NCBI RefSeq assembly: GCF_007197755.1
Contig: NZ_CP041636.1
Span: 3,818,001 to 3,882,000, forward strand
DNA length: 64,000 bases
From: Ferrovibrio terrae
Lineage (GTDB): Bacteria > Pseudomonadota > Alphaproteobacteria > Ferrovibrionales > Ferrovibrionaceae
Reading direction: 5' to 3'
Every line of letters begins with the position of its first letter. Position 1 is the first letter of the stretch. The notes under the pieces are model-generated. The model had not been told where the DNA came from. It saw only the letters and a program-made list of their open reading frames with translations, and did no database searches. The position numbers and the translations under genes were made by a program. Shown here piece by piece: positions 19,073 to 20,152 of this stretch.

Positions 19073-19217
19073 GGCCGGTACCGCCCCGGCAACTCTCGCC
19101 GCCCGTCTGTCCCTGCCCGGCAAAAAATACCGGTTAACGCGCATTCACCATATTTCGTCGTAATGTGATTTCGCCGTAATCCGCCGTATTCACGTCTGTC
19201 TGGGCCACGGCCACGCA

Positions 19218-19233
19218 TGGCATGTCGATTGCT
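19218..19233 (+). promoter_or_regulatory. Sigma-54 (RpoN)-type -24/-12 promoter
   Basis: TGGCATGTCGATTGCT matches the RpoN consensus TGGCAC-G-N4-TTGCW at every specified base except one (C to T). The invariant GG (19219-19220) and GC (19231-19232) are at the correct 10-bp spacing. It is about 33 bp before the start codon of the gene at 19266. Confidence 0.72.
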
Positions 19234-19265
19234 TCTCCTGTCTGCAAAGGACGAGGAGAGATTCC

Positions 19266-19628
19266 ATGTTAGGTGCGATCAGCGGTTTTAATCCGCTTGC
19301 AATGCTGGGCGGTATGGCGGCCAGCAAAGCCATCGATGCCATCGGCGGCATTTTTGCGCCCGATGCACCGCCGGCGCAGACCGGCAAGTTGCAGCAGCTG
19401 ACTCTCGACAAGGATCAGCAGCAGCAGTTCCTCGACACCACCAAGATTGAAGACGCCAGCAAAATGCGGCTGGCCTGGTTCGACGAGCAGCCAGTGGCCC
19501 AGAATGCGGCCGATATGGATGCGCAGCAGCGCAGCCAGCTCGAAGAAACCCTCCGCAAGAAAACGGAAGATCATGTGCGGGCCATGACCGGCAAAACGTC
19601 GGGTGGCCTGGTCAACCTTGTTGCCTGA
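19266..19628 (+). CDS. Unknown small protein, first gene behind a sigma-54-type promoter
   Basis: 120 residues with a strong ribosome site (GAGGAGAG). The N-terminal 30 residues are hydrophobic, glycine- and alanine-rich (ISGFNPLAMLGGMAASKAID) but not a classic signal peptide. The rest is polar and helical with Gln runs (DKDQQQQFLDTT, MDAQQRSQLEETLRKK). I do not recognise a family. RpoN promoters commonly drive flagellar and structural genes in alphaproteobacteria, so a flagellum-associated role is possible but unproven. A second unknown gene follows after 8 bp. Confidence 0.75.
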   Translation: MLGAISGFNPLAMLGGMAASKAIDAIGGIFAPDAPPAQTGKLQQLTLDKDQQQQFLDTTKIEDASKMRLAWFDEQPVAQNAADMDAQQRSQLEETLRKKTEDHVRAMTGKTSGGLVNLVA

Positions 19629-19636
19629 GGAGCGAC

Positions 19637-20014
19637 ATGACCTCCGCAATCTCGAGCTATTTCAACAATCCCTATTACGGCATCAACCAGGCCAGCGGCG
19701 TAAAGCCGACTGACCACGCCAAGAGCCAGGAAGACGCCGCCAAGCAGGGCGCATCCGGCCTGGGCGCTGCGCCGGAGCTGGGCAAAAACGCGCGCGAGGA
19801 ATTCCTCGATTACGCCAAACTGTCGGTGCCCGAGCGCATCCGCAAGCAGTTCCTGGAGAGCAAGGGTCTCGACGAGAAGTCGTTGGCCGCGATGTCCGAG
19901 GAAGACCGCAAGGCGATCGAAGACGAGTTCCGCGAACTGCTGGAACAGAAATTCAAGGACGAGATCAACAAGAAGGGCGAGCAGACCGGTCTGGTCGCCA
20001 ACATCCTGGTCTGA
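19637..20014 (+). CDS. Unknown small protein, second gene of the sigma-54-type unit
   Basis: 125 residues with GAGG upstream of ATG 19637. The first 50 residues look disordered (SYFNNPYYGINQASGVKPTD). The second half is a charged helical region (EFLDYAKLSVPERIRKQF, AMSEEDRKAIEDEF, LLEQKFKDEINKKGE) that looks like a small protein-binding domain. No recognised family. Co-directional with the preceding gene and 8 bp away, so both probably share the RpoN-type promoter. Confidence 0.75.
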   Translation: MTSAISSYFNNPYYGINQASGVKPTDHAKSQEDAAKQGASGLGAAPELGKNAREEFLDYAKLSVPERIRKQFLESKGLDEKSLAAMSEEDRKAIEDEFRELLEQKFKDEINKKGEQTGLVANILV

Positions 20015-20152
20015 TCGTCAGTTTCACTGATCGATGGCAGTCCGCCGTCCGGTGCCAGTTCCGACCGCCGCCACATCCCGGTCAGAAGACCCATGTGGCA
20101 GCGGTCGAGACTGTGCCTGTGAGATTTTTGTACGCCGTGACAATCCCTGCCC

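What the first reader, a model, noticed from the sequence alone, without database searches (positions are those of the whole stretch)
19218..20014. Sigma-54-type promoter driving two unknown small genes
TGGCATG-N4-TTGCT with GG and GC at exactly -24/-12 spacing precedes two co-directional genes of 120 and 125 residues that I cannot place in any family. RpoN promoters of this quality are rare by chance, and RpoN units usually serve flagella, nitrogen or structural genes, so the products may be new components of one of these.
Basis: partly seen in the sequence, partly recalled or inferred. Interest (0 to 1): 0.58.

Follow-up and report, generated by a model that had tools for sequence, protein, structure and literature searches.

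The report
Uncatalogued flagellum-linked small protein family
Two small neighbouring genes of unknown function in a bacterium sit behind the same kind of promoter as its flagellum-hook genes, and they belong to a protein family that the databases searched do not name and that was found only in genomes with flagellum genes.

Summary
The sigma-54 site is real. TGGCATGTCGATTGCT (19218-19233) is one of 7 exact sites in the 4.26-Mb Ferrovibrio genome; two others precede flgE-type hook genes. It is kept in 10 of 10 genus genomes, and a site with this spacing recurs across the wider family (45 of 53 loci, against 2-3 of 53 at other spacings). The two genes are paralogues, from tandem duplication of a gene that is single in six sister species. 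Their helical domain matches no Pfam, NCBIfam or PHROG family. Of 389 alphaproteobacterial genomes 49 carry it (two matches doubtful); all 49 have the flagellar gene flgI (228 of 389 do) and rpoN (308 do); 48 have fliX. Upstream lie two imperfect copies of a palindrome, CGGCA-N5-TGCCG, whose exact copies precede sigma-54 sites of flgE, fliK-flgD, flgF and flgI. Best reading: a FlbD/sigma-54-activated accessory protein of the middle-to-late flagellar programme, perhaps exported (disordered, low-charge N-terminus). Sequence evidence supports the regulation and the flagellar link; the molecular job is inferred. No experiment tests any step.

The parts
19087..19101 (.). upstream palindrome 1, CGGCAACTCTCGCCG (9 of 10 to CGGCA-N5-TGCCG), candidate activator (FlbD-type) site
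   Evidence: one mismatch; the window holds 19 such matches, 9.8 expected; kept in the three sister species that have the gene pair; exact copies precede flgE, fliK, flgF, flgI
19118..19132 (.). upstream palindrome 2, CGGCAAAAAATACCG (9 of 10)
19218..19233 (+). sigma-54 promoter, -24 TGGCATG, N4, -12 TTGCT; start of transcription predicted near 19244
19266..19628 (+). first small gene, 120 aa: diverged paralogue of the second
   Evidence: found by a family profile built without it at E 4.1e-7; dN/dS 0.23
19637..20014 (+). second small gene, 125 aa: N-terminus modelled as disordered (1-46), then a helical domain (about 48-110)
   Evidence: model; dN/dS 0.06
20015..20135 (+). strong hairpin region after the operon, possible end of the transcript (no run of T directly after the stem)
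   Evidence: -57.7 kcal/mol, z -6.7, 0 of 200 shuffles as stable

Best explanation
The operon is a sigma-54-dependent unit of the flagellar programme. An NtrC-type activator, most likely the FlbD-like protein encoded between fliN and flhA, binds the CGGCA-N5-TGCCG palindromes about 86-131 bp upstream and opens the promoter at 19218-19233 together with hook and rod genes (inferred from shared sequence elements). The two products are tandem paralogues of a small-protein family: a flexible N-terminus rich in Ser/Thr/Asn/Gly/Ala, then a domain of helices of about 60 residues (around FLDYAKxSxxERxRxxxLxSxGLTEExLAAMDxxxR) and in part of the family a hydrophobic C-terminal tail. They probably act as an accessory part of flagellar assembly and are plausibly substrates of the flagellar export apparatus (this last step is the weakest).
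For: Sigma-54 site: 10 of 10 genus genomes; family-wide 45 of 53 loci score at least 10/12 at spacer 4, against 3, 3 and 2 of 53 at spacers 3, 5, 6 and 0 of 53 for the reversed sequence. Phylogenetic profile: 49 carriers of 389 genomes, all 49 FlgI+ (228 of 389) and RpoN+ (308 of 389); within the 308 RpoN+ genomes Fisher p 3.4e-8. FliX in 48 of 49. Upstream palindrome: 18 of 52 loci at least 9/10 at gap 5, 0.17 expected, other gaps 0-4; exact copies before sigma-54 sites of flgE, fliK-flgD, flgF, flgI. FlbD-like activator in a fliF-fliG-(217-aa ORF)-fliN-activator-flhA cluster. N-terminus: charged residues 14% (53 family proteins) against 21% (509 control ORFs), S/T/N/G/Q/A 56% against 40%; residues 1-46 modelled with pLDDT under 50.
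Against: The gene is an orphan: in the 85 nearest neighbours of 43 family loci outside the genus no Pfam family recurs more than 3 times, and no flagellar family is among the 25 most frequent of 85 families shown; own locus likewise. 173 of 222 FlgI+ RpoN+ genomes lack a detectable member, so it is not a core part. The profile is not corrected for shared ancestry. Some relatives lack the site: Rhizobium, two 'Rhizobiales bacterium' and Agrobacterium loci, L169, L170, L182; the Azospirillum brasilense Sp7 site lacks the -24 GG (TTGCAC) and L172 lacks the -12 GC. The second flgE-type gene of the own genome has an exact sigma-54 site but no palindrome at 9/10 upstream. Each palindrome of this locus has one mismatch and alone is weak; the element was defined after looking at genus and flgE sequences, and outside the genus 9 of 43 loci have it. 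The N-terminal composition test cannot tell export signals from flexible linkers; fold search gave nothing.
Confidence: 0.7

Rival explanations
1. The genes belong to the flagellar sigma-54 regulon but the proteins stay in the cytoplasm, as a regulator, chaperone or assembly checkpoint rather than an exported or structural part.
For: Small, helical, charged domain; regulation and profile as above. Many flagellar regulators are small helical proteins (recalled).
Against: No FliS, FlgN, FliT, FlgM, FlaF or FlbT model among Pfam/NCBIfam hits of 13 members at E up to 0.1; a long disordered low-charge N-terminus is unusual for those chaperones (recalled).
Confidence: 0.35
2. The genes are in the FlbD/sigma-54 programme of the motile cell but act outside the flagellum, for example in chemotaxis, polarity or surface sensing.
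For: Orphan position; 2 of 85 nearest neighbours carry a chemoreceptor (MCP) domain, and two loci of another class lie beside ORFs that look like a CheV-type and a PAS-type sensor protein (read by eye).
Against: In the own genome the element is shared with hook, rod and P-ring genes; chemotaxis genes were not searched for it.
Confidence: 0.2
3. A nitrogen-type (NtrC) sigma-54 promoter.
For: The genome has other sigma-54 activators (four strong ones) and an exact sigma-54 site before an NrtA-like gene (named by eye) next to an activator.
Against: Co-occurrence with flgI within RpoN+ genomes (49 of 49); the palindrome is not seen by eye in the 220 bases upstream of the NrtA-like promoter.
Confidence: 0.05
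4. Chance match to the sigma-54 consensus.
For: 1.86 sites with at most one mismatch are expected per window.
Against: Conservation in ten species and spacing-specific recurrence in the family.
Confidence: 0.02

Closest known systems
FlbD/FliX-controlled sigma-54 flagellar genes of Caulobacter (hook, flagellins)
   Same: Same kind of promoter, an upstream palindrome at enhancer distance, FlbD-like activator in the fliF cluster, FliX gene beside flgI; review passages seen in PMC3930126 and PMC3096577.
   Different: The protein family is none of the flagellar proteins I know; whether the palindrome equals the Caulobacter ftr sequence was not checked (the one original paper asked for is not held).
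Flagellar export substrates such as FlgD, FliK, FlgE
   Same: N-terminus with few charges and many S/T/N/G/Q/A (FlgD, FlgE; FliK less so, 21% charged) and sigma-54 plus palindrome control.
   Different: No sequence relation found; export not shown.
FlgM (exported anti-sigma-28)
   Same: Small, partly disordered, helical, under flagellar control (analogy, recalled).
   Different: No FlgM model among the hits; no sigma-28 partner was looked for.
FlaF and FlbT (small flagellin regulators of Alphaproteobacteria)
   Same: Size, taxonomic range, flagellar control (recalled).
   Different: No such family among the hits.

Membership tests
sigma-54 (-24/-12) promoters | GG and GC elements with exact spacing and consensus TGGCAYG-N4-TTGCW | tested here: met
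sigma-54 (-24/-12) promoters | RpoN and at least one NtrC-type activator in the genome | tested here: met
sigma-54 (-24/-12) promoters | transcription start about 11-12 bp after the -12 GC and loss in an rpoN mutant | not testable with these tools
   needs 5'-end mapping
FlbD/FliX flagellar regulon | activator gene of FlbD type in the flagellar cluster, and FliX | tested here: met
   Sigma54_activat with a weak receiver domain (below Pfam's cut-off) between fliN and flhA; FliX at contig 4075326-4075736; the name FlbD rests on an arrangement recalled from Caulobacter
FlbD/FliX flagellar regulon | upstream site shared with hook/rod promoters | tested here: met
   each copy here has one mismatch, and one of two flgE-type promoters lacks it
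FlbD/FliX flagellar regulon | site equals the Caulobacter ftr sequence bound by FlbD | not tested
   paper not held
FlbD/FliX flagellar regulon | expression depends on FlbD | not testable with these tools
   needs a mutant
flagellar type III export substrate | unstructured, low-charge N-terminal signal | tested here: inconclusive
flagellar type III export substrate | secretion dependent on the export gate | not testable with these tools
   needs an experiment
any catalogued protein family (Pfam, NCBIfam, PHROGs) | match above the curated cut-off (PHROGs: a significant match) | tested here: not met
   for the two proteins; for 13 members (Pfam, NCBIfam)
flagellar export chaperones (FliS, FlgN, FliT) | match to the family models | tested here: not met
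   no such family among hits of 13 members

The most novel reading that the evidence does not exclude
A widespread, unnamed class of small proteins of Proteobacteria, made together with the hook, is exported through the growing flagellum and signals or tunes a stage of its assembly, in Alphaproteobacteria where no flagellum-specific sigma factor is known (so stated in the abstract of PMC12826043, seen in the listing). In Ferrovibrio it has been duplicated and one copy is specialising.
Probability: 0.2. Interest if true: 0.8.

Novelty: new variant of a known kind. Interest (0 to 1): 0.6.

Why it matters
A family present in 24 family-level groups of the class (22 without two doubtful matches), tied to flagellar genes in every alphaproteobacterial carrier tested, has no entry in the family libraries searched. 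It gives a concrete gene to delete in tractable strains, and its promoter elements offer a way to list the rest of the sigma-54 flagellar regulon, which here holds at least two further genes of unknown function.

Tried and rejected
Known-family assignment: Pfam, NCBIfam and PHROGs gave only sub-threshold matches; PDB sequence search one match at E 0.19; Foldseek against PDB 23 matches, none with E at or below 0.001. Direct BLASTP of the two proteins shows no relation; the paralogy rests on the sister-species intermediate (G005: its first gene matches the second protein at E 3.5e-7) and on the profile. Gene neighbourhood: no recurrent neighbour (85 nearest ORFs of 43 loci outside the genus, mechanical ORF calls, 25 of 85 families shown); loci read by eye or annotation (4 loci; 6 loci) agree; the Azospirillum record bears no annotation. 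Phage or plasmid origin: no phage match; 17 plasmid records in each of two searches, 15 of each 17 from Azospirillum and Agrobacterium. Nitrogen control and chance were rejected for the reasons given. Papers: searches brought up no described protein that I could recognise as this family; they search words, not sequences, so this is no proof of absence from print. Passages only were read of PMC3096577, PMC3930126, PMC4287350 and PMC5579053; other papers were seen only as listings.

Biases to know: the start codon of family genes was chosen relative to the best site, so the figures '44 of 53 within 12-110 bp, against 4 of 898 control ORFs' and '48 of 53 against 33 of 898' favour the family; the spacer control does not depend on the start. 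Control ORFs are mechanical and include spurious ones. Dropped before counts: G001b and G388b (second genes of pairs); also G202, a probable false match inside an FtsH-like ORF; G202 and G388b; G202. G202 and the weak G052 are still among the 49 carriers; without them 47 of 47 are FlgI+. The regions read were picked because they hold AT-rich palindromes or sigma-54 sites; one search is the unpicked control for the first 15 palindromes. The class search scored at most 11 candidates per genome, so weak members may be missed. The confidence was lowered from 0.72 to 0.70 on checking, for the second flgE-type promoter without palindrome and the defective Azospirillum site.

Full report
What is there. 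The window lies in a complete 4.26-Mb genome. Bases 19218-19233 read TGGCATGTCGATTGCT, an exact match to TGGCAYG-N4-TTGCW. 48 bp after its first base starts an ORF of 120 aa, followed after 8 bp by one of 125 aa, both with GGAG-type ribosome-binding sites. Compared with a sister species, dN/dS is 0.23 and 0.06, higher in shifted frames (0.54-6.9), so both are very likely real protein genes.

Is the promoter more than chance? The whole genome holds 7 exact sites against 2 for the reversed pattern. Six of the 7 point at an ORF starting close downstream: 48-58 bp for five and about 73 bp for one. They are two flgE-type genes (Pfam), an NrtA-like gene beside an NtrC-type activator, a VOC-like gene (both named by eye), a 175-aa unknown, and this operon; the seventh lies antisense in a gene that looks like thrC. 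RpoN is present once and there are four strong activators.

The family. Both proteins have relatives in the 10 genus genomes searched. In four genomes (own, G001, G002, G005) there are two tandem genes; in the other six one gene matches both proteins. Direct comparison of the two finds nothing, but the first gene of G005 matches the second protein (E 3.5e-7), and a profile made without the first protein finds it at E 4.1e-7. So the pair is a tandem duplication with one copy diverging. Invariant positions in the 11-row alignment are F56, E66, L73, L83, R91 and E95 of the second protein. AlphaFold (16 sequences, mean pLDDT 67, pTM 0.42) gives pLDDT under 50 for residues 1-46 and confident helices from about 50 to 110; no PDB fold match. 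A C-terminal tail [ND]-[ILVMF]-x-[AV] ends 21 of 56 family proteins against 19 of 793 control ORFs; 12 of the 21 are from the genus.

Distribution. With the profile, 49 of 389 alphaproteobacterial genomes, 30 of 254 genera and 24 family-level groups carry a match; G202 and G052 are doubtful, leaving 22 groups. A survey of the phylum found 23 of 308, seven of them outside the class. Named relatives come from Devosia, Tistrella mobilis, Azoarcus indigens, Azonexus, Rhizobium, Tardiphaga, Terricaulis, Azospirillum brasilense, Agrobacterium pusense and Thalassospira marina.

Promoter across the family. In 45 of 53 loci the best upstream site scores at least 10 of 12 at spacer 4; with spacers 3, 5 and 6 the counts are 3, 3 and 2, and 0 for the reversed sequence at spacer 4. 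Sites lie mostly 45-70 bp from the start (starts were partly chosen by the site). Of the 16 loci, 11 score at least 10, among them Devosia, Tistrella, Azoarcus and Azonexus (three of the 16 repeat genomes already counted). Of 12 further loci, 9 score at least 10, among them the seven outside the class, one of which (L172) lacks the -12 GC. Thalassospira has an intact GG/GC site, Azospirillum brasilense Sp7 lacks the -24 GG. Below 10: two Rhizobium and two 'Rhizobiales bacterium' loci and Tardiphaga (8-9), Agrobacterium (9, far from the start), L169, L170 and L182 (8-9). From memory, Rhizobiaceae control flagella without sigma-54, which would fit part of this.

Link to flagella. All 49 carriers have FlgI, found in 228 of 389 (Fisher p 4.5e-13), and RpoN, found in 308 of 389; among the 308 RpoN+ genomes, FlgI is in 49 of 49 carriers and 222 of 308 overall (p 3.4e-8). 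FliX is in 48 of 49 carriers and 197 of 222 FlgI+ RpoN+ genomes (p 0.02). These tests ignore shared ancestry. The gene itself is an orphan: among the 85 nearest neighbours of 43 loci outside the genus no Pfam family recurs more than 3 times; 2 carry a chemoreceptor domain; no flagellar family is among the 25 of 85 families shown.

Upstream element. The genus loci and the first flgE promoter share a palindrome CGGCA-N5-TGCCG. In 18 of 52 family loci it scores at least 9 of 10 within 200 bp upstream of the site; shuffles give 0.17, other gap lengths 0-4. Nine of the 18 are from the genus and helped to define it; outside the genus it is 9 of 43. Here two copies lie at 19087-19101 and 19118-19132, each with one mismatch. 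In the own genome 56 exact copies exist against 32 for the reversed pattern. Of the first 15, unpicked, 4 copies (3 promoters) have a sigma-54 site of at least 11/12 within 160 bp pointing away; the other 11 have at most 9. The pairs found precede flgE, fliK-flgD, flgF, flgI, a 420-aa unknown and a 344-aa unknown; a 9/10 copy lies between a DUF1153 gene (SciP-like, name recalled) and fliF. The second flgE-type promoter has no copy of 9/10 upstream. An NtrC-type activator with a weak receiver domain sits between fliN and flhA, the place of flbD near fliF and fliN in Caulobacter (recalled); FliX lies divergent to flgI.

Mechanism. Shown: sequence elements, conservation, co-occurrence. Inferred: the FlbD-like protein binds the palindromes, sigma-54 polymerase transcribes from about 19244, the two proteins are made with hook and rod proteins. 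More weakly inferred: export through the flagellar apparatus, from the low-charge (14% against 21%) and S/T/N/G/Q/A-rich (56% against 40%) first 30 residues and modelled disorder. The control ORFs are mechanical, and flexible linkers look alike, so this is only a hint.

Verdict. The new content is the family itself: uncatalogued in the libraries searched, behind sigma-54 sites over a wide range of Proteobacteria, and accompanied by flagellar genes in every alphaproteobacterial carrier tested.

Noticed in passing
own genome, L158:5381-6643 (+), contig 3918880: A 420-aa protein without a Pfam match, with exact palindrome and sigma-54 site upstream; three internal repeats (by eye) around ...NERRAA/NEQRAA; low-charge N-terminus.
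   Followed up: partly
own genome, L161:3826-4860 (-), contig 280325-281359: A 344-aa protein with no Pfam match, containing FSDFLDIINPLQHIPIVNTVYR, with exact palindrome and sigma-54 site upstream.
   Followed up: partly
own genome, L003:1558-2085 (+): A 175-aa protein without Pfam or NCBIfam match (one weak PHROG match, E 0.019) behind an exact sigma-54 site, without the palindrome in the 200 bases upstream.
   Followed up: partly
L132, L135, L136, L137, L165: Rhizobium, 'Rhizobiales bacterium' and Agrobacterium members of the family lack a good sigma-54 site (best 8-9 of 12), perhaps a natural case of rewired control.
   Followed up: no
L046 (G008 gene): The single gene of one sister species carries an extra N-terminal stretch (SRLQQLSFDSETMESFLKLA) that by eye resembles part of the first protein (KLQQLTLDKDQQQQFLDTTK), as if two copies were fused.
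   Followed up: no
window 20015-20135: Very stable RNA hairpin after the operon (z -6.7) before a convergent gene.
   Followed up: no
L005, about 1430 (-): A further exact sigma-54 site about 73 bp before a VOC-like gene, divergent from a gene that looks like a cyanuric acid hydrolase/barbiturase, possibly nitrogen-scavenging control (named by eye).
   Followed up: no
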